Source of the DNA: Halobacteriovorax sp. GB3
GTDB taxonomy: Bacteria > Bdellovibrionota > Bacteriovoracia > Bacteriovoracales > Bacteriovoracaceae
Assembly: GCF_028649655.1 (NCBI RefSeq)
Contig: NZ_JAQSLN010000001.1
Span: forward strand, 496,001-560,000
Direction: 5' to 3'
DNA: 64,000 bases
Shown here: positions 30,655 to 58,271 of the stretch, in pieces
How the letters are laid out: each line of letters opens with the position of its first letter
How positions within the stretch are numbered: position 1 is the first letter of the stretch
Translations under genes and position numbers: made by a program
Notes under the pieces: model-generated
Databases searched by the model: none
What the model saw: the letters and a program-made list of their open reading frames with translations, nothing else
Told to the model about the DNA's origin: nothing

Positions 30655-31668
30655 TTATTTTCTCATCGTTTTAGCAAAGAAATTTTTAAAGTAGGTAACA
30701 ATCAGACGAAATTCATTTGGATAGCTGTCGCTGATGAGAATTTTAATCATCTCAAGAGCTTCAAAAAGGCTTGTAGAGCCTCTGTAGGGACGCTCTGATA
30801 TCATTGCAGAAATAATATCCATACAGGCAACCATAACTGTTTCAGTTCCTGTAATGACCAGACTGTTTTCTTTTTTCACTTCACTTAAGTCATCAGAGAG
30901 GAGGGAGAAAGCATGGTGACCTTCAATGATTTTTAAATGATTTGGTGAAATCGGCAGACGACCTTGAAGAATATCTACAGAGATATCGGCATGCCTTGAT
31001 AGAAGTTTTTTGTCATGTTCGGAAAGTTCTTTTTCATTATATTTTTCTATTGGTACTGCTGACATCCCAATATCTTTGAAGTAACTCGTAACAAAGAGAT
31101 TCTCTAATTCTTTTTCAGAATAGACGTGTGACATTTTCAAAACACCTAGAAGAAAAAGTGAACTTAGAAATGGTTGAGAAAAAATATAATGGTGCTTGTA
31201 CTTTTTAAAGTCGAGATAAAGTTGTTCATGAATACTCGTGTTTTCAAAAAGAAAGCGAAAGAGATTCACAACACTTTGATACTGAAGTTGAAGAAGATCA
31301 TCTTCCATTGGAAACTCATAGAGATAACCCATGTTAATGGCCAAGAGATTCGTTTGCTTTTTCCCCTTCTCAAGGGCATCACCAATCGAGAGAGATCTCG
31401 TTACTTGACGTAGGTTTTCTTGTTGTACAGCAATCAACTCTTTTTTGTCGTCAGCGTAAATGAATAAGTGAATTTGATTATTCTGGATAAGCTCACGAAT
31501 AACATCATTATCAATGTAAGTATTTTTTCTTAAGAGTTCTACATAGAGTCCATTTTCCTGAATGTAAAAATCGCAAGGAGTCGAACTCAAATAGAGGAGT
31601 TGGCGAATTGTAACGGGAACAAGTTTATAACCCAATCTTGCTTGCTCGAGGGCCTGTGCTGCTTTCAT
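30655..31668 (-). CDS. Degenerate HD-GYP-like signalling protein with a novel N-terminal module
   Basis: 337 residues. Residues about 15-90 (TIRQLLYLSSTPCDFYI ... IHLFIYADDKKEL) form the module also seen in three other proteins of this window. The C-terminal half (about 180-330) reads as an HD-GYP domain: YFKDIGMSAVP, LSRHADISVDIL, IIEGHH and DIISAMISERPYRG. The metal-binding HD pair is changed to KD, and the GYP loop is absent, so phosphodiesterase activity is unlikely. It probably acts as a c-di-GMP or protein-binding regulator. The unknown gene at 31849 is divergent, with inverted repeats between. Confidence 0.7.
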   Translation of the reverse strand: MKAAQALEQARLGYKLVPVTIRQLLYLSSTPCDFYIQENGLYVELLRKNTYIDNDVIRELIQNNQIHLFIYADDKKELIAVQQENLRQVTRSLSIGDALEKGKKQTNLLAINMGYLYEFPMEDDLLQLQYQSVVNLFRFLFENTSIHEQLYLDFKKYKHHYIFSQPFLSSLFLLGVLKMSHVYSEKELENLFVTSYFKDIGMSAVPIEKYNEKELSEHDKKLLSRHADISVDILQGRLPISPNHLKIIEGHHAFSLLSDDLSEVKKENSLVITGTETVMVACMDIISAMISERPYRGSTSLFEALEMIKILISDSYPNEFRLIVTYFKNFFAKTMRK

Positions 31669-31706
31669 CTCATCTATTGTACCTCAAATTTGAAAAATCA
31701 AAAGAA

Positions 31707-31796
31707 CTGTCAAAAATGACAGGCACTTATCAGGGGCTAAGAAAACATTAATTTTCAATAAAAAGTGGATCTAAGTACCTGATAAAAAGCTAAGTG
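31707..31796. repeat. Nested inverted repeats between divergent genes
   Basis: CTGTCA AAAA TGACAG (31707-31722) forms a perfect hairpin. TTATCAGG (31727-31734) pairs with CCTGATAA (31778-31785), and CACTTA (31724-31729) with TAAGTG (31791-31796). They lie in the 180-bp gap before the gene at 31849 and could be operators or a folded leader. No known riboswitch consensus was recognised. Confidence 0.45.
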
Positions 31797-31848
31797 GAGA
31801 GAAATGCTCAACTAACTCTAGAAAAAACCGATAAGTATCCTAAAGTAA

Positions 31849-32796
31849 ATGTATATGGAAAAAGAAAAAACAAATATTCACAAATTTAAAGACTATTTAA
31901 ACAAAGGCAATCTTTGTCAAAAGCACGAACTTACAAAGAATGGGAATTTATATTTCCACTGGGCCAACTGGGCCGAGAGTTGTAAGTATCAAAAAAGTTT
32001 GCTCTATAAAAATAGTAAACAGTCTAAGCGTCTTAAGAATCTTGAAGCTGAGCTAGAGAAATTAAAAGACATTCCAATCTGGCTTTCTATTAAAAATGAA
32101 AGACATGAAATTTGTCTCTATGATCTTTATAAAGCCTATTTAGATCCTCGACTTAAAAGTGCCTGGTTTGATGTGCATTCTGAAACATTGGTGTCTTCTC
32201 AGTCAATATCTGGCCCTTATGTTACGTTGCATTCGATGAGATGGTTTGAAAAAGATACTTATGAGAAATTTATCTATTTAAAGATCTTATCTAATTATGT
32301 GCCTTTAAGAAGTTTTCGACTAGGGGTCAATGTTCCTGTTAAGGCCTTTGGTGATGATTCTCCATTGAAAGATATTGGCATGACTCTCTACCAACTTTCA
32401 AAAGATGGATGCGTTTTTAAGATTAAAGGACAATTGAAAATTGCTAATCTTCTCAATAGTGAGAAGTTAACGATGAAAATGAGGATACGTCCTTTTAAAA
32501 ATGTTATTGATGCTGGCTTTGATGATGTTATTAAGGCCTTTTCTAAAATAGACTTTTCAATAATTAATGATGATGAGTTGAGTGTTGTTGAAATTGATCG
32601 AGATGTTATTGATCGCTTTGGAAAAGATGAGGGTGTTCGCTTCTCTAATGGAGATGAATTTTTTCTCTATGTTCCTTATCATCAAATGAAGCTAGTAGAT
32701 GATAAGTATAAAATTTCAGAAATTTTCACTTCACTCGTTAATAAAGTGGAATTCCACTTACTCGATGAACTACAAGAAGATCTAATCGCAGCATAA
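31849..32796 (+). CDS. Unknown protein, possible PilZ-like C-terminal region
   Basis: 315 residues, no signal peptide. The N-terminal 80 residues are basic with a coiled-coil-like helix (SKQSKRLKNLEAELEKLKD). A mid-region YDLYKAYLDPRLKSAWFDV follows. The segment LYQLSKDGCVFKIKG (about 184-198) faintly resembles the D-S-x-G core of PilZ domains, but the N-terminal RxxxR of PilZ was not found, so this is a guess. Start ATG 31849 has no strong ribosome site; ATG 31855 is an alternative. It is divergent from the degenerate HD-GYP gene. Confidence 0.6.
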   Translation: MYMEKEKTNIHKFKDYLNKGNLCQKHELTKNGNLYFHWANWAESCKYQKSLLYKNSKQSKRLKNLEAELEKLKDIPIWLSIKNERHEICLYDLYKAYLDPRLKSAWFDVHSETLVSSQSISGPYVTLHSMRWFEKDTYEKFIYLKILSNYVPLRSFRLGVNVPVKAFGDDSPLKDIGMTLYQLSKDGCVFKIKGQLKIANLLNSEKLTMKMRIRPFKNVIDAGFDDVIKAFSKIDFSIINDDELSVVEIDRDVIDRFGKDEGVRFSNGDEFFLYVPYHQMKLVDDKYKISEIFTSLVNKVEFHLLDELQEDLIAA

Positions 32797-32825
32797 AAAA
32801 AGGGAAGCAATTTGCTTCCCTTTTT
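32795..32825. terminator. Bidirectional terminator between convergent genes
   Basis: AAAAAGGGAAGC (32795-32807) and GCTTCCCTTTTT (32814-32825) form a strong stem with a 5-base loop and A/T tracts on both sides, ending both the unknown gene and the dpp operon. Confidence 0.9.
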
Positions 32826-32827
32826 GT

Positions 32828-33691
32828 TTATTTTCTAAGTCTAGGATCGAGAGTGTCTCTAAGTCCATCTCCCAATAAATTAAATCCAAGAACACATACT
32901 GAAATACAAACACCTGGTAAAGTAACTAGCCAAGGTGAGCTTTCGATATAGGCCCTTGCATCTGCAAGCATAATTCCCCATTCTGGAGTTGGAGGTTGAG
33001 CTCCAAGTCCTAAGAAACCAAGTGCTGCGGCATTAAGAATACCGTCACTGAATCCAAGAGTTGCTTGAACAATCATTGGCGCCACACAGTTTGGTAGAAT
33101 TTCAATGAACATAATTCTAAAGTCTGAAGCACCAAAAGATCTTGAAGCTTGAACGTACTCTTTACTTTTCTCAGTGAGAACACTCGCTCTTACCAGTCGG
33201 ATAAAACTTGGAAGAGAGACGATACTAACTGCAACGATCGCATTCATAAGTCCTGGTCCCATAACAGAGACAACAACAATGGCCAGAAGAATACTTGGAA
33301 AGGCCATAAGGATATCAACAAATCTCATGATCACTTTTTCAATTTTTCCTTCATAGTATCCAGCGATGAGTCCTAGAAAGCTTCCTATTGTTACAGAAAG
33401 AAGAACAACAGCAAAACCGATGAAGAGAGAAATTCTCGCTCCAAAGATTAGACGTGTATATAAATCTCTTCCTAGATCATCTGTTCCTAGAATAAAAAAC
33501 TTATCCCCAGCACTTTCAAATGGAGCGACTCTAAGAGCGCCCTGGATAATTTGGTCTGGAGTATAAGGAGTAAGCATTGGCGCAAATATTGCTAAAAAAA
33601 GGAAAAGAAGAATAATAATGAGACCACAGATGGCCCCTTTATTCTTTTTAAACCTTTTATAAAAATCTTTATCTATTAGTTGAATTGACAT
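32828..33691 (-). CDS. dppC: DppC-like peptide ABC transporter permease
   Basis: 287 residues with six membrane segments. The N-terminus (FYKRFKKNKGAICGLIIILL) and FILGTDDLGRDLYTRLIFGAR are the OppC/DppC signature, and the cytoplasmic loop reads YVQASRSFGASDFRIMFIEI. It imports peptides with DppB. It starts 6 bp after dppB. The terminator at 32795 follows at once, so the ATPase subunits (DppD/F) are not in this operon. Confidence 0.9.
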   Translation of the reverse strand: MSIQLIDKDFYKRFKKNKGAICGLIIILLFLFLAIFAPMLTPYTPDQIIQGALRVAPFESAGDKFFILGTDDLGRDLYTRLIFGARISLFIGFAVVLLSVTIGSFLGLIAGYYEGKIEKVIMRFVDILMAFPSILLAIVVVSVMGPGLMNAIVAVSIVSLPSFIRLVRASVLTEKSKEYVQASRSFGASDFRIMFIEILPNCVAPMIVQATLGFSDGILNAAALGFLGLGAQPPTPEWGIMLADARAYIESSPWLVTLPGVCISVCVLGFNLLGDGLRDTLDPRLRK

Positions 33692-33697
33692 AATTTC

Positions 33698-34717
33698 CTA
33701 CTTTCTAAGTCTTGGGTTAATGACAAGGTAAAGCGTGTCTACCATCGCATTAATAAAAACGATCATTGAAGCAATAAAGAGAAGTCCACCCTGAATAACT
33801 GGGTAGTCCCTCGCAGTAATACTTGCAACAAGCCATTTTCCAATTCCTGGCCAAGAGAAAATTGTCTCAGTAAGAATTGCACCTGTAATGATACTTCCAA
33901 ACATTAGTCCAATAATGGTTACAATTGGAATGAGTGCATTTCTAAGGGCGTGATTGACGACAACTTTAACTGGAGAAAGACCTTTGGCCTTAGCAGTTCT
34001 AATAAAATCTTGTCCAAGAACTTCTAGCATACTCGATCTTGTCATTCTTGCGACGATAGCAAGAGGAATCGTTCCCATGGCAATTGATGGAAGAATAAGG
34101 TGTCTAATTGCACTAAAAAATGGTGCAATTCCTTCTTCACTCAATACCGTTGGGCTCAAAGTATCGATCAGATAAAAACCTGTAAGATTAGGAATATCGT
34201 AGATAACTTCAATTCTTCCCGAAACTGGTGTAATTCCCATTTGTACAGAGAAGATAAGAATCAGAATAAGGCCCCACCAAAAGATTGGCATTGAATATCC
34301 TGTTAGCGATCCTCCCATGAGAATGTAATCTAGGGGAGAGTTTCTTTTTACGGCCGCAATAACTCCAAGAGGAATTCCTAGAATAATGGCAAAGACCATT
34401 GCACAGATTCCAAGTTCAAGAGTTGCCGGAAAACGAGAAAAGAATTCTTCAACGACAGGTCTCTTAGAGACAATCGATAAACCTAACTCACCTTGAAACA
34501 CTTGAGTGAGGTAGTTGAAGTATTGTTTATAAATTGGAAGGTCAAGTCCAAGGTTTCTTTTCATTTCCATGTAAACAGCAGGGTCTGCACCCCTTTCTCC
34601 TAACATGAGAAGAACTGGATCACCTGGAATAAGTCGAATAAGAAAAAAGGAAATGACCGAGATCCCTACAATTGTAGGGATCAGCGATAGCATTTTTTTT
34701 AGAAAGTGAGTCAACAT
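33698..34717 (-). CDS. dppB: DppB-like peptide ABC transporter permease
   Basis: 339 residues, six membrane segments. The N-terminus ISVISFFLIRLIPGDPVLLM and the loop DFIRTAKAKGLSPVKVVVNHAL are hallmarks of DppB/OppB. The start codon overlaps the stop of the binding-protein gene by one base. Functions as a heterodimer with DppC. Confidence 0.92.
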   Translation of the reverse strand: MLTHFLKKMLSLIPTIVGISVISFFLIRLIPGDPVLLMLGERGADPAVYMEMKRNLGLDLPIYKQYFNYLTQVFQGELGLSIVSKRPVVEEFFSRFPATLELGICAMVFAIILGIPLGVIAAVKRNSPLDYILMGGSLTGYSMPIFWWGLILILIFSVQMGITPVSGRIEVIYDIPNLTGFYLIDTLSPTVLSEEGIAPFFSAIRHLILPSIAMGTIPLAIVARMTRSSMLEVLGQDFIRTAKAKGLSPVKVVVNHALRNALIPIVTIIGLMFGSIITGAILTETIFSWPGIGKWLVASITARDYPVIQGGLLFIASMIVFINAMVDTLYLVINPRLRK

Positions 34718-36315
34718 TATTTAAGCTCTACGTATTTTAAAATATCATTACCAAGAGGATCAATTTTATATCCTCCAACCTTATTGCTCATAGCTCTAAA
34801 AACAATTGAGTGTGCAATTGGTACCCAAGGAGCTTGTTCTTTGAAAACAACTTGTGCTTGTCTGTAGAGTTCAGTTCTCTCTCTTACATCAGTTGTTGTC
34901 TTTGCTTTCATTACTAGGTCGTTAAATGGAGAGTAACACCACTTCGCATAGTTTGATCCAGCAGCTACTGCTGAACAACCTAGAAGCGTATTGAGGAAGT
35001 TGTCAGGGTCTCCATTGTCTCCTGTCCAACCCATCTGCAGCATTTCGTGTTCACCATCAGATGATTTTTTCAGGTAAGTTGGCCAGTCGTAACTAATAAG
35101 TTCAACTTTGATTCCAATCTTCGCAAGGTCAGCTTGCATAAGCTCACCCATCTTCTTTCCATTTGGGTTGTATGGGCGAGTAACTGGAAGGGTCCAAAGA
35201 GTCGTCTTAAATCCATCAGCATATCCTGCTTCTTTAAGAAGTTCTTTTGCTTGAGCAATGTTGTACTCATCATCTTTGATATCGTCATTATATGACCAGA
35301 TCGTTGGAGGAAGAGGGTTCTTTGCTACTTGAGCGTGACCAAGGTAAATAGCATCAATATAGCTCGACTTATTTAGTGCCATTGAAATCGCTTTTCTAAC
35401 CTTTACATTATCAAATGGCTTTTTCTCAGTATTCATTGCTAGGTAACCAACATTGAACCCTGGAGCTTGCATCAATTTAAGGTCTTTATTCTCTTTCATT
35501 GCTTGAAGATCTGCAGGAGATGGTTCAATCACAAGGTGACACTCACCAGTCTTTAGTTTTTGGTAACGAACTGATGCATCTGGTGTGATAGCAAAAACGA
35601 GACGATCAACTTTAGGCTTTCCTTCAAAGTACTTATCAAAGGCCTTGTACTTGATGAGATTGTCTTTGACATACTTTTGGAAAACATAGGCGCCTGTTCC
35701 AACAGGGTAGTTGTCGATGTCTTCTTTTTTGTCTTCTTTAACAAGCTTGTCAGCATACTCTTTTGAAAGAACACTCATAAAAGGCATGGCAAGGTTTGCT
35801 AAGAAAGGAGCTTCTGGCTTTGAAAGGATGATTGAAACAGTGTGCTCATCAACTTTTTGAACATCTTTAATAATATCGCCCATGGCCATACCGCTAAAAT
35901 ATTCATAGTTCCCACCACCAACTTTATGGAATGGATGATCTTTAGATCTCATTCTGTTAAAGCTGAAAATGATGTCATCTGCATTCATCTTACGAGTAGG
36001 CTTGAAGTAGCTTGTCGTGTGAAATTCAATGTCTTTTCTTAGGTTGAATGTGTAAGTTAATTTGTCATCAGAGATGGCCCATGAGCTAGCTAGAGCTGGA
36101 GTCAGTTCTGTTGTTCCATATTTAAACTCAACAAGTCTATTGTAGATTGTTTGTCCTGCAGCGTTGCTAGAAGTTCCATCTGTTGTGACTTGTGGGTTGA
36201 AGGCCGTAGGGCTTCCCTCTGAACAATATACAAATGTCTTGTTATCTGCTTTCTTTCCCGAACAAGCACTCAGTAAACCTGTTAGTGCAAGCAAAAGTCC
36301 GATATTACGAACCAT
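34717..36315 (-). CDS. dppA: DppA-like peptide-binding lipoprotein
   Basis: 532 residues, SBP_bac_5 family. The signal ends in a lipobox (LALTGLLSACSG), so this is a tethered binding protein rather than a free periplasmic one. Signature regions are FVYCSEGSPTAFNPQ, LTPALASSWAISDD, DDIIFSFNRMRSKDHP and AISMALNKSSYIDA. It captures short peptides, or haem in E. coli DppA, for the permeases encoded downstream. First gene of a three-gene operon with GGAGG upstream. A peptide importer suits an organism that lives on digested protein. Confidence 0.92.
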   Translation of the reverse strand: MVRNIGLLLALTGLLSACSGKKADNKTFVYCSEGSPTAFNPQVTTDGTSSNAAGQTIYNRLVEFKYGTTELTPALASSWAISDDKLTYTFNLRKDIEFHTTSYFKPTRKMNADDIIFSFNRMRSKDHPFHKVGGGNYEYFSGMAMGDIIKDVQKVDEHTVSIILSKPEAPFLANLAMPFMSVLSKEYADKLVKEDKKEDIDNYPVGTGAYVFQKYVKDNLIKYKAFDKYFEGKPKVDRLVFAITPDASVRYQKLKTGECHLVIEPSPADLQAMKENKDLKLMQAPGFNVGYLAMNTEKKPFDNVKVRKAISMALNKSSYIDAIYLGHAQVAKNPLPPTIWSYNDDIKDDEYNIAQAKELLKEAGYADGFKTTLWTLPVTRPYNPNGKKMGELMQADLAKIGIKVELISYDWPTYLKKSSDGEHEMLQMGWTGDNGDPDNFLNTLLGCSAVAAGSNYAKWCYSPFNDLVMKAKTTTDVRERTELYRQAQVVFKEQAPWVPIAHSIVFRAMSNKVGGYKIDPLGNDILKYVELK

Positions 36316-36752
36316 TAGTTCCTCCCATTGTGTTGTGTGAATATATTATTTTTACAAGCGGACTGTAAGAAGACAACAACTTATCGCCGAAAAACCGATC
36401 TTTTTTGGCCAGTATTGCCGCACTCTCTTCTCTTGAATTGGATGCTGCGCTGCTTGGAAAAATAAAAAATGTGTGTGGTTTTATATCACGACTCAGCGAC
36501 TCCTTGAGTCGTAAGAATTATTTTTGTCAACTTATTTAAAGAAATGATATTTATCTACCTGAAAAATCGAAGGTTATTAAAGTTTTTAGTAAAAAATGGT
36601 GAAAAATAATCATGCAAATAGACCAGAGAAAAGTTTTTTATTTGTAACTTTTTCAATAACGTCTATTTTTATGCCACTTTTTTTTGGAGTTGTGTATTTT
36701 GCCCTCACATACAGCTTAATAAGCTCGTGTTCACATTTTTGGGGGGTATAAA
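36316..36752. other. 437-bp intergenic region, no gene found
   Basis: The gap between the divergent dppA and L,D-transpeptidase genes holds no supported open reading frame. It contains an 8-bp stem hairpin (ACGACTCA 36488-36495, TGAGTCGT 36505-36512) followed by a T-rich tract, a perfect 13-bp palindrome (36713-36725), and a G6 run (36741-36746) just before the transpeptidase. A small RNA or a long regulatory region is possible. Confidence 0.5.
36713..36746 (+). promoter_or_regulatory. Palindrome and G6 leader upstream of the L,D-transpeptidase
   Basis: AGCTTA-A-TAAGCT (36713-36725) is a perfect 6+1+6 palindrome, 27 bp before the start. GGGGGG (36741-36746) ends 6 bp before ATG and is the only candidate ribosome site, an unusual form shared with two nearby envelope genes. 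Confidence 0.45.
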
Positions 36753-38180: not shown

Positions 38181-38221
38181 TCCTTTTTGAGAGAGGGATT
38201 ATTTTATACCCCAAATGACTT

Positions 38222-38250
38222 AAGGTCCCGTTTATACGGGGCCTTTTTTT
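38222..38250 (+). terminator. Terminator after the L,D-transpeptidase gene
   Basis: AAGGTCCCG (38222-38230) and CGGGGCCTT (38237-38245) pair with one G-U, followed by seven T residues. Confidence 0.85.
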
Positions 38251-38309
38251 GTTCTAAAAATCAACACTTCTTCAGCTTTTCTTTTATATCCCGATAAGTT
38301 TATTGATAT

Positions 38310-41442: not shown

Positions 41443-41487
41443 AGATTCTAAAAGAGGGTCTAGTTATTAGACCCTCGATATTGGAGA

Positions 41488-44777: not shown

Positions 44778-46118
44778 ATGAAGAAACTTCTTCTTATCAG
44801 TCATAATGATATTATTTGTTCGTTGTATAAAACGAATCTAAAAGTTTACGTAAACTGTGAACTGGATGTTTCAAAGGGCTACCAAGAAGCTCTGGATAAA
44901 CTTGAAGATGGTGAGAGCTATGATCTTATTCTCTGTGAAAGTTCTCATGGCGAACATGCGGCCGGTGCGCTCATCTACCAATATCTGGTAGAGCATGATG
45001 TTAAAAGTGAACTGATCTTACTTGGAAGAAATGATGATGTTCCTGAAGATGTTGATGCCATTGGGGATGTTACAAATATTCCCGATCTTATTAAGATGAT
45101 TGCTAAGAAAGTGAATATCACAGCTAAGGACATGATTGCCCTTGATGTTCCGGATATGTTTCCACTCTCAATACGCCTATTTTATAGCCTGAAAACTTCT
45201 CCTTGTAATGTTTATTGCAAGACAGAAGATAATTATCAACTGATCTTTTCTAAGGACGGACCAGTCTGGCCAGAAATTAAGCAATACCTCGATCAAGGTG
45301 TTGGCGAGTTGTACGTTCATGCCATGGACCGTTTAAAACTTGTCAATGAATCAACGTCAGTGCTTCTTAAGATTGTGAAGAATAAACGAGATGGTGCAAG
45401 TGCCGATGAAAAAATCGATGTCACTGAGCAGGGCTTTGAAGCTGTTGCTCAAGCTTTCTTTGGTGGAGATGAGTTTAATGAAGAGCTTCTTCAGCTTTCA
45501 AATGAATGTATGTCGATGATGCAAGATGTGGTGAAAGAGATCCCAGATCTTAAAAACTTGATTCTCCTTTTAGCTAAGAATAAATCGAGCTTTCTTTTTA
45601 GTCACTCTGTGATTGCAACTTTTGTTGCTGAACATATTGTTACTGAAATCTCTTGGGGCTCTGATGCTCATAGAGAAAAGCTTAAATTTGTCTTCTTCTT
45701 TCACGACATTTTCTTAGCTCCAATCTATGCCAAGTATCCTGATCTCACTTATGAAGATTCTCTCGTTCTAGATAAGAGACTTTCAGAAAAAGAAAAAGAA
45801 CAAGTCCTCTCGCACGCTAAAGATGCAGCAGAAGCGCTATCGCGTTATCCTAAAATTCCTATGGGTGCCGATACAATTATTCGTCAACATCATGGAACGA
45901 CAAATGGACTTGGATTTGCGATTCAATACAAAGACGATATCTCGCCACTTTCAAAAGTGATGATTATCTCAGAGGCCTTCACTGAATCAATTCTTCGTGC
46001 TCTCAAAGAAGAGGGGGTGAAACTTGATAAGAAAAAGGCAATTGAAGATCTCAAATTGCGTTTTAGAAAACATACATATATCAAGATCATTGAAACACTT
46101 GAGAACATTCCTGTTTAA
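44778..46118 (+). CDS. Degenerate receiver plus novel module plus degenerate HD-GYP protein
   Basis: 446 residues from ATG 44778 (AAAGGA upstream); a TTG at 44736 in frame is less likely. Residues 1-110 look like a receiver (KKLLLISHNDIICSLY, YDLILCESSHG) but lack a clear phospho-acceptor Asp. Residues 127-197 (PLSIRLFYSLKTSPCNVY ... GVGELYVHAMDRLKL) are the shared module. The HD-GYP part keeps an HD pair in FFHDIFLAPIY but loses the GK, and the GYP loop reads QHHGTTNGLGF. Probably a non-catalytic regulator. It is tail to tail with its paralogue at 46115, sharing 4 bp. Confidence 0.75.
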   Translation: MKKLLLISHNDIICSLYKTNLKVYVNCELDVSKGYQEALDKLEDGESYDLILCESSHGEHAAGALIYQYLVEHDVKSELILLGRNDDVPEDVDAIGDVTNIPDLIKMIAKKVNITAKDMIALDVPDMFPLSIRLFYSLKTSPCNVYCKTEDNYQLIFSKDGPVWPEIKQYLDQGVGELYVHAMDRLKLVNESTSVLLKIVKNKRDGASADEKIDVTEQGFEAVAQAFFGGDEFNEELLQLSNECMSMMQDVVKEIPDLKNLILLLAKNKSSFLFSHSVIATFVAEHIVTEISWGSDAHREKLKFVFFFHDIFLAPIYAKYPDLTYEDSLVLDKRLSEKEKEQVLSHAKDAAEALSRYPKIPMGADTIIRQHHGTTNGLGFAIQYKDDISPLSKVMIISEAFTESILRALKEEGVKLDKKKAIEDLKLRFRKHTYIKIIETLENIPV

Positions 46119-47521
46119 AAAAGTGTTCTTTGAAGTGAATTGAGAGGCTCTTTAAAATTTCCAACATTATAAAGAGTCTTGATCTCACGAAAGATCTTAA
46201 TGAGGTTCCCTTGCTCTCCATTACTCATCGCAAGCCGAGTGGTAAAGGCGGTCGCTAAAATAAAGGCACAGCTGTGAGCAGTGAGCTTGTTGGAAGTGAG
46301 TTTTGCCGGGAATCCATCTCCTCTTGGACGTTCGTGGTGTTGAGCAATGATAAAGTCAACTTCAGAGTAGCCTTGGAAATGTCTGGCCATTTGCGCAGCT
46401 TTTGCTGGATGAAGTCTAAACTCTTCCTGCTCCTGTTCAGTAAACATCGCAAGATTTCTATCGTCGAGAGATCGAATTTTTGAGAGGTCTTCATTTGTTA
46501 ACATGGAATCATAGAGAATACTTGCAAGCCCAAGTTTTTTTCTCGAAGTATCACTGGCCCAACCAAGGCCAACAAGCATGGCCTCACAGAGATAGGCGGT
46601 GAAAACGGCTTGTTCTGAAGTATCGAAATTATTAAAAGGAAAATCTACTAGTAGAGTTTTCATCTTTCCATATTGTCTAAAGACGATATTGGTCGTCTCG
46701 ATCAGTTCTTTGCAAAGAAGGTTCAGCTCCTTTGTAACACCAACTTTTTGAATGTATTGGTGGGCGAGAAGAACGCCCTTAATCTGTGTTGCGATTAATA
46801 TCTTTGGTGTTTGCTTATTTTTTTGTTTTAAAATAAAGAGAATTCTCTTCATTCCCTCTTCGAGTAATTTTAGAAAATCGTCTTTAAATAAGTAGAGGTG
46901 CTTAACTCCGCGCTTAGAGAAATTACTAATTTCTGCCTGAACGTATTTCTTATCTTTTGTTAGTACTTTAGCAAACTTTGTTTGAGTCAGTTCCAAGTAG
47001 GCATCGTAGGGGATTGTATTGTAGAGATAGAAATTTCTAATTCTCATAGGAAGAAGCTCTTCCTTATCGATTTCAATAATACTTTGTTCAAACTCTTCTT
47101 TTCTAACCCAATCGAGACCGGCCTTAACTATTTTTTTAAAGGAGTGAATATCAAAAGGCTTAATAAGGATCTCGTTGACTTCACTTTCTTCAATGAGCTG
47201 CTCATCGATTCTAGAAGAAATGTGAACTTTCTCGCCAACAAAGATGATAGGTCTTTCTCCGGCGAGATCGATAATATTTTGAGCAATCTGACTAGGTTCT
47301 TCATTTTTTAGACCGGCTTCAATTAAAAAGAGAGAAAAGCTCTCTTCAGAACCAATCTTTTCTATGGCCTCATCTCCATGTATGCAAAAGACAACTTCAA
47401 GCTTCGTGAAGTGGCTTGCAAAGAGATTTCTATAATAAGTCCATAAATCTTTTTCATCGCAGACAAATAGGGCCTTCAAATACTTTCCTTTATTAGGGAG
47501 TTTCTCTATGTATCTTATCAC
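46115..47521 (-). CDS. Receiver plus novel module plus degenerate HD-GYP protein
   Basis: 468 residues. The N-terminus (KALFVCDEKDLWTYYRN, SLFLIEAGLKNE, LIKPFDIHSFKK) is receiver-like, with Glu in place of the acceptor Asp, which can mimic the phosphorylated state. The shared module spans about 153-225 (PMRIRNFYLYNTIPYDAYL ... GVKHLYLFKDDFLKL). The HD-GYP domain has the HD pair changed to YD (ASILYDSML) but keeps RLHPAKAAQMA and AQHHERPRGDGFP. It probably binds partners or nucleotide without hydrolysis. Convergent paralogue of the gene at 44778. Confidence 0.75.
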   Translation of the reverse strand: MIRYIEKLPNKGKYLKALFVCDEKDLWTYYRNLFASHFTKLEVVFCIHGDEAIEKIGSEESFSLFLIEAGLKNEEPSQIAQNIIDLAGERPIIFVGEKVHISSRIDEQLIEESEVNEILIKPFDIHSFKKIVKAGLDWVRKEEFEQSIIEIDKEELLPMRIRNFYLYNTIPYDAYLELTQTKFAKVLTKDKKYVQAEISNFSKRGVKHLYLFKDDFLKLLEEGMKRILFILKQKNKQTPKILIATQIKGVLLAHQYIQKVGVTKELNLLCKELIETTNIVFRQYGKMKTLLVDFPFNNFDTSEQAVFTAYLCEAMLVGLGWASDTSRKKLGLASILYDSMLTNEDLSKIRSLDDRNLAMFTEQEQEEFRLHPAKAAQMARHFQGYSEVDFIIAQHHERPRGDGFPAKLTSNKLTAHSCAFILATAFTTRLAMSNGEQGNLIKIFREIKTLYNVGNFKEPLNSLQRTLF

Positions 47522-49887: not shown

Positions 49888-49918
49888 TAAATTAGATTAA
49901 AAACTTCTCGAGGTTTTC

Positions 49919-50557
49919 ATGTCTGATTCTTCAAATCTTGTTGCTAAAACTCTTCTTGAACTTAAGTGTGTCCAATTTTCTCCCAATGAACCTTTTACCT
50001 ATGCTTCTGGTTTAAAAGGTCCCATGTATTGTGACAATCGATTATTACTCTCACATCCAAAAGAGCGCTCACTAGTGATTGATCTCTTTATCAAAGTGAT
50101 TGAAGAAAATAATCTTTCTTATGATCAACTTGCAGGTCTTGCAACAGCGGGAATCCCACATGCTGCCTTTATTGCTGATCGCTTAAAAAAGCCCATGCTC
50201 TACATTAGAAGTAAGGCCAAGGGACATGGAAAGGGCAACCAGATTGAGGGAAGATATAAAGAAGGGGAGAGATTGCTTCTAGTCGAAGACTTGGTTAATC
50301 AGGGCTCAAGTCTTGAGAAGGCGGTTTTGGCCGCCAAGGAAAGTGCTCTGGAATTGAGCGGGTGTCTCTCTATTGTCGACTATCAAATGGAGCAGGCCCA
50401 TGCTCGTCTTAAGAAGTTCGATCTTACTCTCTTTTCGCTAACAGATTTCACCTCACTTGCCGATACGGCACTAGAAATGAAGCTCATTGATAGGACGGGA
50501 CGTGAAATTTTAGAAAAGTGGCATGCTGCGCCGGCAGACTGGCAAGCTCCTCTATAA
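49919..50557 (+). CDS. pyrE: Orotate phosphoribosyltransferase
   Basis: 212 residues. FTYASGLKGPMYCDNRLLLS is the PyrE opening, with the PRPP-binding loop in RLLLVEDLVNQGSSLEKAV and the Lys-rich flexible loop (YIRSKAKGHGKGNQIEGRY). It makes OMP from orotate and PRPP in pyrimidine synthesis. No other pyr gene is adjacent. It lies 31 bp after the histidine kinase gene, possibly in the same transcript. Confidence 0.93.
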   Translation: MSDSSNLVAKTLLELKCVQFSPNEPFTYASGLKGPMYCDNRLLLSHPKERSLVIDLFIKVIEENNLSYDQLAGLATAGIPHAAFIADRLKKPMLYIRSKAKGHGKGNQIEGRYKEGERLLLVEDLVNQGSSLEKAVLAAKESALELSGCLSIVDYQMEQAHARLKKFDLTLFSLTDFTSLADTALEMKLIDRTGREILEKWHAAPADWQAPL

Positions 50558-50761
50558 ATTTCAGTTAATTAGACGCACCTAATAACGACAAATCGTATAT
50601 TTGTTAGTAGGTTAGCGATAATGACTCCTTTAGGCTTGGCCCTGTGCTAAAATTTGAGCCTCATGTAAGACCAAAAACCTTTGGAACATTGAACGATAGA
50701 TTAAGATTACAACGACTTGTCGTAATATATTTCTCAGAAACCTATATTTGGAGGATTTTTT

Positions 50762-52036: not shown

Positions 52037-52046
52037 TCGCTAAATT

Positions 52047-52077
52047 GGCCCTCTTCTAAAGTGGGCCTTTTTTTTTT
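52047..52077 (+). terminator. Terminator after gltA
   Basis: GGCCC (52047-52051) pairs with GGGCC (52063-52067) with a further CTCTT/AAG inner pairing, followed by ten T residues. Confidence 0.85.
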
Positions 52078-52086
52078 GGAAAAGAA

Positions 52087-53145
52087 ATGAACGGAAACAC
52101 TTTAAGGCCTTTGCTATTAAATCCCAATCTTCCAGAGACTAAACTCGTCGATAAACTCAAAGAGGTGAGTGCTAATTTTACTTCTTCGCGTGATCAGATT
52201 GGAAAGTACGTTTTAGATGAGGACATGGTTAGTGCCTATGCCGCATTTTTTCTTCCTACAAATATTCCGAAATTTCACTTCTTAATGAATCAATTGAGTG
52301 AAGAGGTTAAGAGTTACCTAAAAGATGCAACCTTCATTGATATTGGTTGTGGCCCTGGAACTTATTCTGTGGCCTTTTTAGAGGCCTTAAATGCCAAGGG
52401 ACGAGTTCACCTTGTCGACTCTAGCCCTTTAATGCTTAAACAAGCTCAAAAGATCATTAGTGCTCTCTATCCAGAGGCTAATGCCACGTACAGCTCAGAA
52501 GTTCAAGTGGAAGATTCTAAGCGCGTTCTTTTTTGGGGTAATAGTCTCAATGAGATGGGGGTTAAGGCCGCTAAAAAGATCTTAGAAAAAGTTCAAGCAG
52601 ATATGATTCTCTTTATTGAGCCTGGAACAAAAGAAGTCTTTGATCAGGTACATCTTTTAAGAGAGAGTTTAATTGAAAAGGAATTTGATATTCTCTATCC
52701 TTGCCAAGATTCTAAAAAATGCCCTGCTGCTAAAAATGATAAGGAGTGGTGTCACCAAGTTCTTCGCATGACCCATGAATTATCTATTGAGCGATTGGGA
52801 CAAATGGCAAAAATTGATCGAAAGATCATGCCTTTTATTGGCCACGTCTACTCCAAAAAAACACTCTTTGAACATGGAAATACATCGGCCCTCCTTTTTC
52901 GCTTTCTACAGGAGACTAAATTTTCTTTCAATTGGCAATTGTGTGCAAATGTTGAAGGAGAGTTAAAGCTTATTCATGTTGAAGTTATGAAGAAGGATCT
53001 CGGCAAAAAAGTAGCAAAAGAATTCAAGAAATTAAGTGTCGGGTGTCGAGTTGAATATGAGGTTTTGAAGGTATTAAAGGACAATCATTTAAGAATTCGT
53101 GTGCAAAATTTAGACGATCTCTTGAGTTTTTCTTTGAATACTTAG
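52087..53145 (+). CDS. Rsm22-like methyltransferase-family protein
   Basis: 352 residues. A class I SAM fold is read from DIGCGPGTYSVAFLEAL (about 85-102). It then has the Rsm22 cysteine cluster: Cys206, Cys212 and Cys222 in CQDSKKCPA and EWCHQV, followed by ERLGQMAKIDRK. Rsm22/METTL17 proteins assist small-subunit ribosome assembly in mitochondria and bind an iron-sulfur cluster through these cysteines. The bacterial role is less known. The start follows the gltA terminator with GGAAAAGAA; it may need its own promoter. Confidence 0.8.
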   Translation: MNGNTLRPLLLNPNLPETKLVDKLKEVSANFTSSRDQIGKYVLDEDMVSAYAAFFLPTNIPKFHFLMNQLSEEVKSYLKDATFIDIGCGPGTYSVAFLEALNAKGRVHLVDSSPLMLKQAQKIISALYPEANATYSSEVQVEDSKRVLFWGNSLNEMGVKAAKKILEKVQADMILFIEPGTKEVFDQVHLLRESLIEKEFDILYPCQDSKKCPAAKNDKEWCHQVLRMTHELSIERLGQMAKIDRKIMPFIGHVYSKKTLFEHGNTSALLFRFLQETKFSFNWQLCANVEGELKLIHVEVMKKDLGKKVAKEFKKLSVGCRVEYEVLKVLKDNHLRIRVQNLDDLLSFSLNT

Positions 53146-53224
53146 GGTTCCCAAAGCTTCTGTCATTTTCTTTGTTATTTGCCAAAATAATCTTTTGAAT
53201 AAACCGATAGTGTCTCCATAATCA

Positions 53225-55660
53225 ATGTTAGTGGAAACATCTGTGAATCAAAGAAAGTCTATATTTACAGTCTTTAAAAGAAGGTTGGCTTTTGTCAGCT
53301 TAGCCTGCTTTGTTGTGCTTGCTTTCTTCTGGATGGGTGAACTTTATTTTGGTTACCAAGGTCACTACGAAGAGATTAAAAATGATGTTTATCATGACAA
53401 AGAACTTTTGATTCGATCTCAAGTAAATAATGCCATTCAATTTATTTCCAATAAAAGACAGAAAGTAGAAGTCCATCTAAGGGAGAAGTTAGAAGATAAA
53501 GTTTCAAGTGTTGCTAAGTCGATTGAAGGACACGACAAGGCCTTTAGATCAAAGGACTCACTCGAAGATTTTATTATTAAATCTCTTCGTGGTCTCGAGT
53601 ATAAAAATAATCGTGACTACTTCTTTGCCTTTTCTAGAAATGGGAAAATGATTTTTCATGGAAATAATAAAAAGCTTCAAGGTAAGCATGTTCCTTTTCT
53701 AAAAGATGAAAAGGGCAATCTTATTATGGAAGAGTTTATAAAAACGGGAATGGGTGGTGGAGGATTCTACGACTACTGGTGGAAGCATCCTCAGACTCAT
53801 CTGGTCGATCGAAAATTTTCTTATGTTAGAAGAATTGGGCTCTCCGATTATTTTATCGCAGCTGGTGAGTATTACTCAGATGTCGAAAAAAGAGTAAAAG
53901 ACGATGTTATTGAGTGGTTTCGATCAATTCGTTTTGAAAATGGTGAAGGCTACCTTTTTGTATTTACTGAAGATGGACATCAATTATTAAATCCTGGAAG
54001 TCCTGAAATTGAAGGAACTTCTGTTGTAAAACTCAAAGATGCGAGGGGCCGAGAATTCGTCTCAGATATAATGAATGCGGCTAAGTCCTCTGGGGGTGGA
54101 GTCACTAAGTATTTTTGGAAGAAACCTACAAATGGTATTGTCAGTGAAAAATTGACCTTTGTACGTTTTGATCCTATGTGGAAATGGGTTATTGGAACGG
54201 GGATCTATCTTGATTCAGTTGAGAAAATTCTCGCTGTTAAAAGATCACATCAAAAGAAAGAGATCTTTTTAAAAATTATCTTGATTGTAGTTATTGCAGG
54301 ACTGCTTTTCTTTCTCTTTCAGTATAACAACCATAAATTCTTTAAAAAGATTAATTCTGAAACAAGTAACATCATTCAGTACTTCTCAAAAAGTCATGAA
54401 CTAGAAGAGAAGTTAGATATTGAAAATATATATTACGAAGAGTTTTATCATATTGTTGAAGCTTACAATCAAATGATTGAAAAACATGTCAAAGTGGAAC
54501 AAGAAAAAGAGAGTCTCCAAGTTCAGGTTCTCGAATCTATGGAAGAGAGTGTTAGGATTAAAAATGATTTTCTAGGTACTGTCTCCCATGAACTTAGAAC
54601 TCCATTAAATGGGATTAAGGGGATGTGTGAGCTCTTAGAGGGAACAGAATTAAGTGATGAACAAAAAGAATATCTTGGAACTCTTGATGGTTGTTCTGAA
54701 CGATTAAACATTCTTATTCACGATCTACTAGACTATTCACGTCTAGAGACGGGAAAATTTAAGCTTTTCAAAAAGAGCTTTTCTTTAAATGAGATCATAT
54801 CTACTCTTGAAAATATTTATAACTTTCGTGCAAAAGAAAAGAGCATCGAATTCTCTATTACGACAAATGCCAAAAAGGATGTGAATATTATCGGTGATGA
54901 TATGCGTATTCTTCAAATCGTAATGAATCTTCTCGATAATGCTTTCAAATTCACTAATACTGGAAAAGTAGAGCTTGTGATTAATGCTTCTTCAATAAAA
55001 GATTCGATAAAGCTTGATTTTCAAATTCAAGATACAGGAATTGGTATCTCCGATAAGAAAAAGGCAACTATTCTCGAGTCCTTCTCTCAAGAGGAATCCA
55101 CAAACTCTAGGCGTTATGACGGTTTGGGCCTTGGTCTAAGTATCTCTAAGAAGTTAATTGAGATGATGGGTGGAACGATTGGGTTTGAAAGTGAAGAGGG
55201 GACAGGTTCTGTTTTTTACTTCTTTGTCGTTGCAAAGCTCGACCATACTGTGACGAGTGTTAATGAGCAGTGGGAAGATCAAATTAAAGGCCTTCGCATT
55301 CTCATTGCTGAAGATAATCCTGTTAATTTGAAATTGATTAAAAAGCTTCTTGAAAAAAGAGGTCTTTCGCCGGATATCGCCTTGAACGGACAAGAGGCCG
55401 TGGATGCTGCTCTTTTAAATGATTACGATATGATTCTTATGGACATTCAAATGCCGATTCTTGATGGAATGAATGCTTCTCTTAAGATTAGAGAGTTCGT
55501 TGGTAGTACGCCTTTCATTGTTGCCCTAACGGCCAATATGGAAGAGGTTACAAAAGAAGAGTGTTACAAGAGTGGAATGAATTACTTTGTTTCAAAGCCA
55601 ATTAAGAAAGATAAATTGAAAGAGATTGTTGAAGTTTATACAAAAGAAAAAGGCTCCTGA
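53225..55660 (+). CDS. Double-Cache hybrid sensor histidine kinase with receiver
   Basis: 811 residues. Membrane segments at about 22-42 and 350-368 enclose a periplasmic region with two repeated Cache units (YFFAFSRNGKMIFHGN, then YLFVFTEDGHQLLNPG), each ending in a W/K...G-x-Y segment. Then come HisKA (LGTVSHELRTPLNGIKGM), HATPase (NLLDNAFKFTNTGK, GLGLGLSISKKLIEMMGG) and a C-terminal receiver (ILIAEDNPVNLKLI; acceptor Asp in MILMDIQMPILDG). Cache sensors bind small metabolites. A hybrid kinase of this type usually passes phosphate to an Hpt protein, which is not nearby. Confidence 0.92.
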   Translation: MLVETSVNQRKSIFTVFKRRLAFVSLACFVVLAFFWMGELYFGYQGHYEEIKNDVYHDKELLIRSQVNNAIQFISNKRQKVEVHLREKLEDKVSSVAKSIEGHDKAFRSKDSLEDFIIKSLRGLEYKNNRDYFFAFSRNGKMIFHGNNKKLQGKHVPFLKDEKGNLIMEEFIKTGMGGGGFYDYWWKHPQTHLVDRKFSYVRRIGLSDYFIAAGEYYSDVEKRVKDDVIEWFRSIRFENGEGYLFVFTEDGHQLLNPGSPEIEGTSVVKLKDARGREFVSDIMNAAKSSGGGVTKYFWKKPTNGIVSEKLTFVRFDPMWKWVIGTGIYLDSVEKILAVKRSHQKKEIFLKIILIVVIAGLLFFLFQYNNHKFFKKINSETSNIIQYFSKSHELEEKLDIENIYYEEFYHIVEAYNQMIEKHVKVEQEKESLQVQVLESMEESVRIKNDFLGTVSHELRTPLNGIKGMCELLEGTELSDEQKEYLGTLDGCSERLNILIHDLLDYSRLETGKFKLFKKSFSLNEIISTLENIYNFRAKEKSIEFSITTNAKKDVNIIGDDMRILQIVMNLLDNAFKFTNTGKVELVINASSIKDSIKLDFQIQDTGIGISDKKKATILESFSQEESTNSRRYDGLGLGLSISKKLIEMMGGTIGFESEEGTGSVFYFFVVAKLDHTVTSVNEQWEDQIKGLRILIAEDNPVNLKLIKKLLEKRGLSPDIALNGQEAVDAALLNDYDMILMDIQMPILDGMNASLKIREFVGSTPFIVALTANMEEVTKEECYKSGMNYFVSKPIKKDKLKEIVEVYTKEKGS

Positions 55661-55673
55661 CGGAGCCTTTTTT
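55648..55673. terminator. Bidirectional terminator with the hybrid kinase stop codon in its loop
   Basis: AAAGGCTCC and GGAGCCTTT form the stem; the 4-base loop TGAC contains the kinase's own TGA stop. T runs occur on both strands, so the convergent rpmE transcript can end here too. Confidence 0.88.
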
Positions 55674-55675
55674 GA

Positions 55676-55939
55676 TTATTTCTTTTTAAGAGCAGCGTAA
55701 GAATTTCCAAATTTCTTCTTGAACTTCTCAATACGTCCTTCAGTATCAAGAACTTTTTGCTTCCCAGTATAGAATGGGTGTGAAGCTGAAGAAATATCAA
55801 GCTTAACCATTGGATACTCTTTTCCTTCGAAAGTAGTCGTTAGGTCAGTCTTGATTGTTGATTTTGTAAGAATTTCTTCTCCACAAGAAACGTCGTGGAA
55901 AACTACTTCTCTGTACTCTGGGTGAATACCTTTTTTCAT
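55676..55939 (-). CDS. rpmE: Ribosomal protein bL31, type B
   Basis: 87 residues from ATG 55939 (AGAGG upstream); upstream in-frame codons were rejected. [16 protein letters not shown] and [13 protein letters not shown] are the L31 signatures, with the type-B length and spacing. Only one Cys (VSCGEE) remains of the zinc ribbon found in the C+ form, so the protein cannot bind zinc in the usual way. 50S subunit protein near the central bridge. Confidence 0.95.
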
Positions 55940-56054
55940 AATAAAACCTCTGATTTCGTTACATTGCTTGATACAATGATTCTTAAATATAAGTCTTAGG
56001 AATTTCGCTAATTTTCGGCCTGTTGTCAATAGGCAAAGCCCGAATTAGTAAAGT

Positions 56055-56330
56055 TTAGTGGGCGCTACAGCTTGAGCAACCATCGCCACTTTGTCCATTC
56101 GTAGCATCAACAAATTCCCATGAGTCGTAACGAGAGTTGAGAGCGTCCATGGCTTCTTCAAGAGAGTAGTGTTCAGATTGAAAGAGTTCTTTATCGTCAA
56201 AATCAGTTACTGTGACGAAGAAAAGCTCTTGGATCTCATTTTCATCACTTGGCTCAGCTCCAAGACTGATAAAGGCCTTGAGTTTTAAGTTCTTGAAATG
56301 ACAATAAGTCCAGTTTTCATTTGTGATCAT
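56055..56330 (-). CDS. Small protein with C-terminal Cys-rich tail
   Basis: 91 residues, mostly an alpha/beta-looking domain (LFFVTVTDFDDKELFQSEH, SLEEAMDALNSRYDSWEF) that ends in GDGCSSCSAH, a CxxC plus His that could bind a metal. No known family was recognised. It lies between two ribosomal protein genes (rpmE 115 bp downstream, rpmG divergent) and has no strong ribosome site. Low-level unknown, but the tail looks selected. Confidence 0.6.
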   Translation of the reverse strand: MITNENWTYCHFKNLKLKAFISLGAEPSDENEIQELFFVTVTDFDDKELFQSEHYSLEEAMDALNSRYDSWEFVDATNGQSGDGCSSCSAH

Positions 56331-56494
56331 ATTTGCTCTCGAGCACCATCAAATGGGCCATCTAACGTTTTTTTTTCATGTTTTATCAGTTTTTGGTTGT
56401 CATGCCAAACGGAATCTAGTAAGTTTTCCAGACCGCTATTGGTTTAGTTATTAGTTAATATATTGATTTTAAATAGTTTATATTGGAGGCTGTC

Positions 56495-56671
56495 GTGGCA
56501 AAGGGACCTAGAGTAGTTATTACACTTGAGTGTACAGAGGCGAGAAAGTTAGGAAAATCTCCTTCACGTTACACTACAACAAAAAACAAGAAGACGAACC
56601 CAGATCGTCTAGAGATTAAGAAATACAATCCATTTCTTAAGAGACACACTGTTCACAAAGAAATTAAATAA
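56495..56671 (+). CDS. rpmG: Ribosomal protein bL33
   Basis: 58 residues from GTG 56495 with GGAGG 6 bp upstream; a TTG at 56483 lies ahead of the ribosome site and was rejected. The backbone [17 protein letters not shown] and [15 protein letters not shown] is that of the zinc-binding form, but the usual CxxC reads CTEA and the later CP reads NP. So three of four zinc ligands are gone. It binds near the E site of the 50S subunit. Confidence 0.94.
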
Positions 56672-56683
56672 TTTCTCGATATA

Positions 56684-56715
56684 AAAGGCCCTTCTTCTAA
56701 GAAGGGCTTTTTTTT
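56684..56715 (+). terminator. Terminator after rpmG
   Basis: GCCCTTC (56688-56694) and GAAGGGC (56701-56707) form a stem with a 6-base loop, followed by eight T residues. Confidence 0.88.
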
Positions 56716-56819
56716 GCCTTTTTTTACTTTCACCCACTTACTCATTCAATTTTTCTTTAGATTTTTAGGATAAATACCGATCTGTGTTAAAGTAAAACCT
56801 AGCTAATAGGGGATAAACT

Positions 56820-58271
56820 TTGGCCTTAAATGTACTGCTTGCTGATCCTGATTCCGAATGGTTGGAAACAGTCGGTAAGTTTCTTCGAGATCAATTCTAT
56901 CAAGTAAAATGTGTTACCAATGGTAAGGACGCACAGCTGTCTTTATACAATGATAAATATTTTGCTGTGATTATCAATTGGGACTTGAAAAATCATGCAG
57001 GAAGCCAGGTTTTAAAGTTTATTCGCACAAATTATCCCTCTCAAAAAGTCATTCTCGTTCTAGAAAATGATGGGCTCTATGCTTCTGGCCAATATGATGA
57101 AGAGAAGTTGAAAAAACTTGGAGCAACAGAAATCGCTCTAAAGCCATTTGAAATCTCACATTTAAAAGAATTATTAGAAGGTCACCAGAGTCTTGGAGAT
57201 CTCGTTTCTTCTCTGCCAAAGAGGGAAGGTCTCTCTGAAGAGGAAGAAGTTCAGCTTCAAGATGAAGAGTTTACAAGTGTTAACATCAATAGCTTCTATT
57301 CTTCAAAAGCAGTTCTCTTTGATATTTATATTCGCCTTTCAAGTGGACGCTATGTAAAGATCTTGCATGCTGGAGATAACTTTTCAAAAGAGCGAATTGA
57401 TAAATACAAAAATGACAAAGGTGTTGAGAATCTCTACTTTCATAAAAGTGATAGAAGAAAATTCATTCAATATAATAACTACTTAACAAGAAAGGTCGTT
57501 GGAAATAAACAACTTCCTGGTTCTGTTAAAATCGATATGATGAAAAATGTGGCCGATAAATTCGTTGAAGAAATTCATACGCAAGGGGTAAAGCCACAAG
57601 TTGTTGATCAAGGAAAAGAAGTTTGTAAAACCCTCTTTCGTCTGGTTGAAAAACAAGATGATCTCTACAAAGTTTTAAAAGAGCTTGAGCAGGACGATCC
57701 CAATATCTTCACTCATAGCTTCCTTGTTAGTCTCTATTCAACGGCGATTATTAAGCAATTTGAGTGGCAATCTCAAATTACAATCGAATCGACGGCACTT
57801 GCTTGCTTACTTCACGATATTGGAAAAACAAAGCTTCCAAAAGAGCTTATTTCCATGCGACCTGAAGATATGAACGATGAGCAGCTTGAAGAGTACCAAA
57901 ATCACCCACAATACGGTGCTGAGATCGTAGAGCAAAATAGAATGATTAATAACTCTGTTAAGCAGATTATTTTACAACACCATGAGTGTTATGATGGAAG
58001 TGGTTTTCCATTTGGAAAGAGGGGATCAAAGATTCTAACGCTTGCTAATATCGTTAAACTTGCCGATGACTTCACCCACATCATGCTCGATGAGAAAAAG
58101 AGTCCGACAGAGGCCCTCAAATCAATTCTCATGAACCAAGAGATGGTGGCCCGCTATAACTCAATGATCGTTGAAAATTTCATTAAGGTCTTTGTTGATC
58201 CTGCAAAAATTGAAAGGGAAGCAAAAGTTCTCCCTTCAAATAGTCGCATGGTTAATAAAAAAGCTTCTTAA
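56820..58271 (+). CDS. Receiver plus novel module plus intact HD-GYP phosphodiesterase
   Basis: 483 residues from TTG 56820 (AGGGGA 6 bp upstream). The receiver (1-120; LNVLLADPDSEWLE, Asp in VIINWDLKNHAG) is followed by the shared module at about 150-225 (VNINSFYSSKAVLFDIYI ... GVENLYFHKSDRRKF). The HD-GYP domain is intact: ACLLHDIGKTKLPKEL, YQNHPQYGAEIV, QHHECYDGSGFPFG and VKLADDFTHIM. It should hydrolyse c-di-GMP. It is the only canonical member among four related proteins here and overlaps the DUF4340-like gene by 20 bp. Confidence 0.85.
   Translation: MALNVLLADPDSEWLETVGKFLRDQFYQVKCVTNGKDAQLSLYNDKYFAVIINWDLKNHAGSQVLKFIRTNYPSQKVILVLENDGLYASGQYDEEKLKKLGATEIALKPFEISHLKELLEGHQSLGDLVSSLPKREGLSEEEEVQLQDEEFTSVNINSFYSSKAVLFDIYIRLSSGRYVKILHAGDNFSKERIDKYKNDKGVENLYFHKSDRRKFIQYNNYLTRKVVGNKQLPGSVKIDMMKNVADKFVEEIHTQGVKPQVVDQGKEVCKTLFRLVEKQDDLYKVLKELEQDDPNIFTHSFLVSLYSTAIIKQFEWQSQITIESTALACLLHDIGKTKLPKELISMRPEDMNDEQLEEYQNHPQYGAEIVEQNRMINNSVKQIILQHHECYDGSGFPFGKRGSKILTLANIVKLADDFTHIMLDEKKSPTEALKSILMNQEMVARYNSMIVENFIKVFVDPAKIEREAKVLPSNSRMVNKKAS

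What the first reader, a model, noticed from the sequence alone, without database searches (positions are those of the whole stretch)
30655..58271. A shared, apparently unnamed ~70-residue module in four HD-GYP-family proteins
Proteins at 30655-31668, 44778-46118, 46115-47521 and 56820-58271 all carry the same region directly upstream of an HD-GYP-like domain: an I-R/N-x-F-Y-like start, a P-x-D-x-Y step about 10 residues later, and a G-V-x-x-L-Y/F-x-x-x-x-D end. Three have a receiver-like domain in front of it; the first lacks one. I could not match the module to a named domain. Four copies in 64 kb implies an expanded lineage-specific signalling family. The alignment is seen by eye; its role as a sensor or c-di-GMP/partner-binding domain is inference.
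Basis: partly seen in the sequence, partly recalled or inferred. Interest (0 to 1): 0.75.

Follow-up and report, generated by a model that had tools for sequence, protein, structure and literature searches.

The report
Bd1817-type N-terminal domain, multiplied in predators
The shared 70-residue stretch is real, but it is the unnamed front domain already seen in the crystal structure of the Bdellovibrio protein Bd1817; what is less expected is that this predatory-type bacterium carries 13 copies, mostly in signalling proteins whose enzyme and receiver parts have lost key residues yet stay conserved.

Summary
All four proteins carry a homologous module of about 70 residues directly upstream of an HD-GYP-like domain. 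A profile without the window copies finds exactly these four among 194 window ORFs (each E <= 2e-10). The module has no Pfam or NCBIfam model, but it is not a new fold. It is the N-terminal domain of Bdellovibrio Bd1817 (PDB 3TM8): sequence profile E 2.3e-9; AlphaFold model TM 0.71, the only Foldseek hit below 1e-3. A 2023 review already notes this domain in Bd1817 and Bd2325. It is not private to this genome: it occurs in 251 of 291 sampled genomes of the phylum (median about 10 copies in this family, about 4 in others) and also in proteins without HD. It resembles DUF3391 remotely; PilZ is not supported. Of 13 copies in this genome, only one HD domain keeps every catalytic residue. P0002 keeps the metal ligands but has GFP instead of GYP. 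The three other window proteins have lost ligands, and all three receivers lack the phospho-acceptor aspartate. These pseudo-HD domains are conserved between genera (54-58% identity) and partly syntenic. Best reading, inferred: a coupling or docking domain in mostly non-catalytic proteins of the cyclic-dinucleotide network.

The parts
30655..31668 (-). P0003: module + helical linker + degenerate HD domain, no receiver (337 aa)
   Evidence: orthologues L180 (67% identity), L183 (54%)
31399..31626 (-). Bd1817-NTD-type module of P0003
   Evidence: E about 1.7e-10 with window copies left out
44778..46118 (+). P0001: degenerate receiver + module + degenerate HD (446 aa)
   Evidence: orthologues L182, L179
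45150..45374 (+). module of P0001
46115..47521 (-). P0004: degenerate receiver + module + degenerate HD (468 aa), tail-to-tail with P0001, stop codons overlapping by 4 bp
   Evidence: orthologues L176, L171
46832..47065 (-). module of P0004
56820..58271 (+). P0002: receiver with Asn at the acceptor position + module + HD-GYP with intact metal ligands but GFP motif (483 aa)
   Evidence: AlphaFold model m800fa48fb8e1; orthologues L163, L162
57261..57497 (+). module of P0002 (modelled: E4-8 H9-12 E22-25 E31-35 H43-52 E57-61 H62-78)

Best explanation
The module is the N-terminal domain type of Bd1817/Bd2325: a compact beta-alpha domain whose last helix leads into the helical linker that joins it to the HD-GYP domain. 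In this genome it sits between a receiver, mostly with its phospho-acceptor lost, and an HD-GYP domain, mostly with metal ligands lost. Shown: the homology, fold, architecture, residue losses, their retention in orthologues and the synteny. Inferred: most of these proteins no longer hydrolyse cyclic dinucleotides. They act as receptors or scaffolds whose conserved pseudo-HD domain is the output surface, and the module couples or docks it to an upstream domain or to partner proteins, while a small catalytically competent minority (L003, perhaps P0002) sets the nucleotide level.
For: Identity: the 13-copy profile A3, without any Bdellovibrio sequence, hits 3tm8 residues 21-93 at E 2.3e-9. The module model (pLDDT 87.5) matches only Bd1817 in the PDB (E 7.4e-4, TM 0.71), and full-length P0002 matches Bd1817 best over 319 columns. 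Mobility: the module also sits C-terminally after receiver-like fronts and linkers, and at the N-terminus of about 930-aa proteins, both without HD, so it is an independent domain. Non-catalytic: of 13 own copies only L003 keeps H, HD, K, H, HH, GYP, D, D, R; P0002 keeps the seven metal ligands; the others have lost at least one. Across 125 module+HD proteins 67 lack at least one of seven ligands. Maintained function: the pseudo-HD domains of P0003, P0001 and P0004 keep 74, 68, 80% identity to the same-genus orthologues and 58, 58, 54% to another genus, similar to competent L003 (76, 63%); receivers change fastest. Order of P0001/P0004/P0002 is kept in another genus. Precedent: Bd1817 is inactive and showed no c-di-GMP binding (PMC4159591, PMC3774798); Bd2325 carries this domain type and an HD-GYP (PMC10482364) and lies in the RomR polar-hub proximity set (PMC11025332).
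Against: No experiment on any of these proteins. Bd2325 itself is an active cGAMP phosphodiesterase (PMC9140294), so the module is not tied to inactivity. Loss of ligands is read from alignments; catalytic loss is inferred. No interaction partner is known for the module, and the AlphaFold model has no dimer or partner. The receiver acceptor differs between P0004 orthologues (E, D, E), so some receivers may still be phosphorylated in some species.
Confidence: 0.5

Rival explanations
1. The module is a divergent DUF3391, i.e. the same small domain that precedes HD-GYP domains in other phyla, under a sequence so changed that Pfam misses it.
For: Same place directly upstream of HD-GYP. hhalign against 15 DUF3391 sequences: score 22.1, P 1.3e-4, probability 53%; 0 of 200 column shuffles reach it (best 14.0), a reversed copy scores 8.1; receiver profiles of P0001 and P0004 against the same DUF3391 core give 0.2-0.5%. 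DUF3391 gave no hit in 192 genomes of the phylum, as if replaced.
Against: The confident match covers 28 columns only; global alignment is not significant. No module copy reaches DUF3391 in Pfam. No DUF3391 structure was found to compare. No control genome rang.
Confidence: 0.35
2. The module is a ligand-binding sensor (c-di-GMP, cGAMP or another metabolite) that gates the HD domain allosterically.
For: Position between input and output domains; phylum-wide use in HD-GYP-type proteins; conserved FD, GD, LY and D positions.
Against: No PilZ or other ligand-domain hit in Pfam or by fold. Bd1817, which holds this domain, showed no c-di-GMP binding (PMC3774798).
Confidence: 0.2
3. Ordinary phospho-regulated phosphodiesterases: receivers are phosphorylated by nearby kinases (e.g. 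the hybrid kinase at 53225-55660) and HD domains hydrolyse c-di-GMP; the residue changes are tolerated.
For: P0002 keeps all seven metal ligands; L016 and L005 keep the receiver residues.
Against: P0002 has Asn at the acceptor, as do its two orthologues, and lacks the GYP tyrosine; P0001, P0003 and P0004 lack metal ligands; only L003 has the full set and it has no receiver.
Confidence: 0.15

Closest known systems
N-terminal domain of Bd1817 (PDB 3TM8, 3TMB, 3TMC, 3TMD)
   Same: Same sequence family (E 2.3e-9), same fold (TM 0.71), same place before helical linker and HD domain; Bd1817's HD domain is also degenerate and inactive (PMC4159591, PMC8177086).
   Different: Bd1817 has no receiver; three window proteins do. 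The HD domains of P0001, P0003 and P0004 have other residue losses. L007 (G000:C1, outside the window) is the likely Bd1817-like copy here: no receiver, Glu and Asn at the same two ligand positions.
Bd2325, cGAMP/c-di-GMP phosphodiesterase of Bdellovibrio
   Same: HD-GYP, helical linker and NTD, as stated in PMC10482364; in the RomR proximity set (PMC11025332).
   Different: Active enzyme (PMC9140294); not compared by sequence here, since no annotated HD100 genome was in the tools.
DUF3391 (PF11871)
   Same: Sits directly upstream of HD-GYP; remote profile similarity.
   Different: No direct Pfam match for any of 95 module copies; similarity confident over 28 columns only.
RpfG-type response regulators (REC-HD-GYP)
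   Same: Receiver in front and HD-GYP behind (P0001, P0002, P0004).
   Different: The module lies between them; receiver acceptor and HD residues are mostly lost.

Membership tests
Bd1817 N-terminal domain family | Significant sequence profile match to residues 21-94 of 3TM8 | tested here: met
   E 2.3e-9 with a profile lacking Bdellovibrio sequences
Bd1817 N-terminal domain family | Same fold | tested here: met
   AlphaFold model vs 3TMB: E 7.4e-4, probability 1.00, TM 0.71 over 76 columns; next non-Bd1817 hit E 0.13
DUF3391 (PF11871) | Match above the Pfam cut-off | tested here: not met
   None of 95 members; none in own genome
DUF3391 (PF11871) | Profile-profile homology over the core | tested here: inconclusive
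   P 1.3e-4, probability 53%, 28 columns; beats 200 shuffles
PilZ | Pfam PilZ match or PilZ fold | tested here: not met
   No Pfam hit; no PilZ structure among the best Foldseek hits
Active HD-GYP phosphodiesterase | Metal ligands H, HD, H, HH, D | tested here: not met
   P0001, P0003, P0004 lack one or more; P0002 alone in the window keeps all seven
Active HD-GYP phosphodiesterase | GYP motif | tested here: not met
   P0002 GFP, P0004 GFP, P0001 GFA, P0003 no motif
Active HD-GYP phosphodiesterase | Hydrolysis of c-di-GMP or cGAMP | not testable with these tools
   Needs enzyme assay
Phospho-accepting receiver | Acceptor Asp with acidic pair, Thr/Ser and Lys | tested here: not met
   Acceptor position E (P0001), E (P0004), N (P0002); full set only in L016 and L005 outside the window

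The most novel reading that the evidence does not exclude
Predatory Bdellovibrionota have built a large lineage-expanded class of pseudo-response-regulators (dead receiver, Bd1817-type docking domain, dead HD-GYP) that act as non-catalytic cyclic-dinucleotide receptors or polar scaffolds, outnumbering the catalytic HD-GYP enzymes and together organising prey attack.
Probability: 0.3. Interest if true: 0.65.

Novelty: new member of a known kind. Interest (0 to 1): 0.42.

Why it matters
A phylum-wide domain with a solved structure since 2011 still has no curated family model, so its proteins are recognised only as HD-GYP or not at all. Giving it a model would expose the family. The many conserved pseudo-HD-GYP proteins in predatory bacteria suggest that counts of phosphodiesterases from domain searches overstate the enzymes and miss a class of likely receptors or scaffolds. 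That is directly testable by deletion and localisation in a genetically tractable Bdellovibrio.

Tried and rejected
PilZ: no Pfam or fold support. Private to this genome: rejected, phylum-wide. A genome-contig scan with the alignment was not possible; with one Bdellovibrio protein it reached only close relatives, nearly all titled Bdellovibrio or its families. Search outside the phylum: plasmids gave no module match, and a centre in another phylum was not accepted, so presence outside the phylum is untested. My recollection that similar N-termini precede HD-GYP domains in other delta-type bacteria is a lead only. L006 as a 14th copy: inconclusive. The primary Bd1817 paper and the cGAMP HD-GYP paper are not in the library.

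Full report
OBSERVATION. The four ORFs are present; two are on the minus strand. A first profile of the four segments (A2) found seven further significant copies in the same genome, and the 13-row profile A3 finds 13 copies, each upstream of an HD-type domain. With all window copies and near relatives removed, the profile still picks exactly the four proteins out of 194 window ORFs, each at E <= 2e-10. The module is therefore real homology, not a chance motif. Thirteen copies placed at random would put four within 26 kb with P = 0.001.

IDENTITY. None of 95 module copies has a consistent Pfam match, and NCBIfam has none either. The sequence profile, built without any Bdellovibrio protein, hits one solved structure, Bd1817 of Bdellovibrio bacteriovorus (3TM8), residues 21-93, E 2.3e-9. 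The profile A4 gives 5.3e-20, but it contains a Bd1817-like sequence (L088), so that value is partly circular. An AlphaFold model from the 95-row alignment (pLDDT 87.5, pTM 0.73) matches only the Bd1817 entries with confidence (E 7.4e-4, TM 0.71, probability 1.00; next hit E 0.13). The full-length P0002 model (pLDDT 85) has Bd1817 as best hit over 319 columns covering module, linker and HD; the high rmsd (15 A) suggests a different domain arrangement, though the relative placement of domains in the model may itself be uncertain (pTM 0.58). The 2023 review PMC10482364 describes the same three parts (NTD, helical linker, HD-GYP) in Bd1817 and Bd2325. So the domain is known structurally but has no curated family.

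DISTRIBUTION. In the window's class 124 of 129 genomes have it, in the phylum sample 251 of 291. Median copy number is 10 in the window's family and about 4 in positive genomes of other families, the latter counted by hand from the listing. A module protein of one sampled phylum member (G170) is 97% identical to one of B. bacteriovorus strain kdesi, which places the phylum as Bdellovibrionota; the class Bacteriovoracia for the window is my inference. Outside the phylum the question is open.

CONTEXT. The module is not tied to HD. It occurs at the C-terminus of proteins with a receiver-like front and a long low-complexity linker (L108, L109, L111-L114, L116) and at the N-terminus of about 930-residue proteins (L106, L107); those scanned have no HD hit. 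That the fronts are receiver-like is my reading of the sequence.

DEGENERATION. Residues were mapped on PmGH numbering (PMC4159591) from the alignment. Of the 13 module+HD proteins here, L003 alone keeps all catalytic residues; P0002 keeps the seven metal ligands but has GFP for GYP and lacks D308; P0001 lacks the last Asp (E), P0004 lacks three ligands (Q, Y, T), P0003 lacks three (Q, K, M) and the GYP region. Orthologues in the same genus and in another genus keep most of these losses. In 125 sampled module+HD proteins 58 keep all seven ligands and 67 do not; this sample is biased to high-scoring modules. Receivers: P0001 and P0004 have Glu at the acceptor position, P0002 has Asn, kept in its two orthologues; only L016 and L005 keep the full set.

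CONSTRAINT. Comparing domains between orthologues, the pseudo-HD domains are the best or nearly best conserved part (74, 68, 80% to the same genus; 58, 58, 54% to another genus), like the HD domain of the competent L003 (76, 63%), while receivers drift fastest. P0003, P0001, P0004 and P0002 keep order and orientation in the same-genus genome; P0001/P0004/P0002 keep it in a second genus. This argues against decay and for a non-catalytic function.

MECHANISM. Best supported, partly inferred: the module is a coupling or docking domain whose last helix leads toward the linker helices and HD domain (P0002 model: helix 209-228, then 234-254 and 259-278). Most proteins of the set are likely receptors or scaffolds. 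Bd1817 gives the precedent of an inactive HD domain with this NTD (PMC4159591, PMC3774798); Bd2325, an active cGAMP phosphodiesterase (PMC9140294), is in the RomR polar-hub proximity set (PMC11025332). None of this was tested on the window proteins.

DUF3391. The module shares place and a weak but shuffle-resistant profile similarity with DUF3391, with receiver profiles as negative control. DUF3391 gave no hit in 192 genomes of the phylum, with the caveat that no control rang. A common origin is plausible and unproven.

VERDICT. The claim of an unmatched module becomes 'known structure, unnamed family'. The new points are its phylum-wide reach, its occurrence without HD, and the conserved, doubly degenerate paralogues.

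Noticed in passing
L114:1936-3573 (-), also L108, L109, L111, L112, L113, L116: Proteins of the phylum with a receiver-like N-terminus, a long low-complexity linker and this module at the C-terminus, no HD domain; one lies in a Bdellovibrio genome next to a cysteine desulfurase-like gene.
   Followed up: partly
L106:2041-4839 (+), L107:2085-4592 (+): Very long proteins, coiled-coil by eye (about 930 aa), with the module at the N-terminus and no Pfam hit.
   Followed up: no
L006 (G000:C3, about 687 kb): HD protein with a lost HD pair and an N-terminus that may be a very diverged module (4.9 bits).
   Followed up: partly
53225-55660: Hybrid histidine kinase, by eye with two Cache-like sensor parts and a C-terminal receiver, just upstream of P0002; a possible phospho-partner.
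   Followed up: no
46115-46118: P0001 and P0004 are convergent with ends overlapping by 4 bp; the same convergent pair exists in two other genomes (L182/L176, L179/L171).
   Followed up: yes
22310-27298 (-): Phosphate-uptake operon by eye: pstS, pstC, pstA, pstB, phoU, phoB, with a phoR-like kinase gene following at 20478-22307 (-).
   Followed up: no
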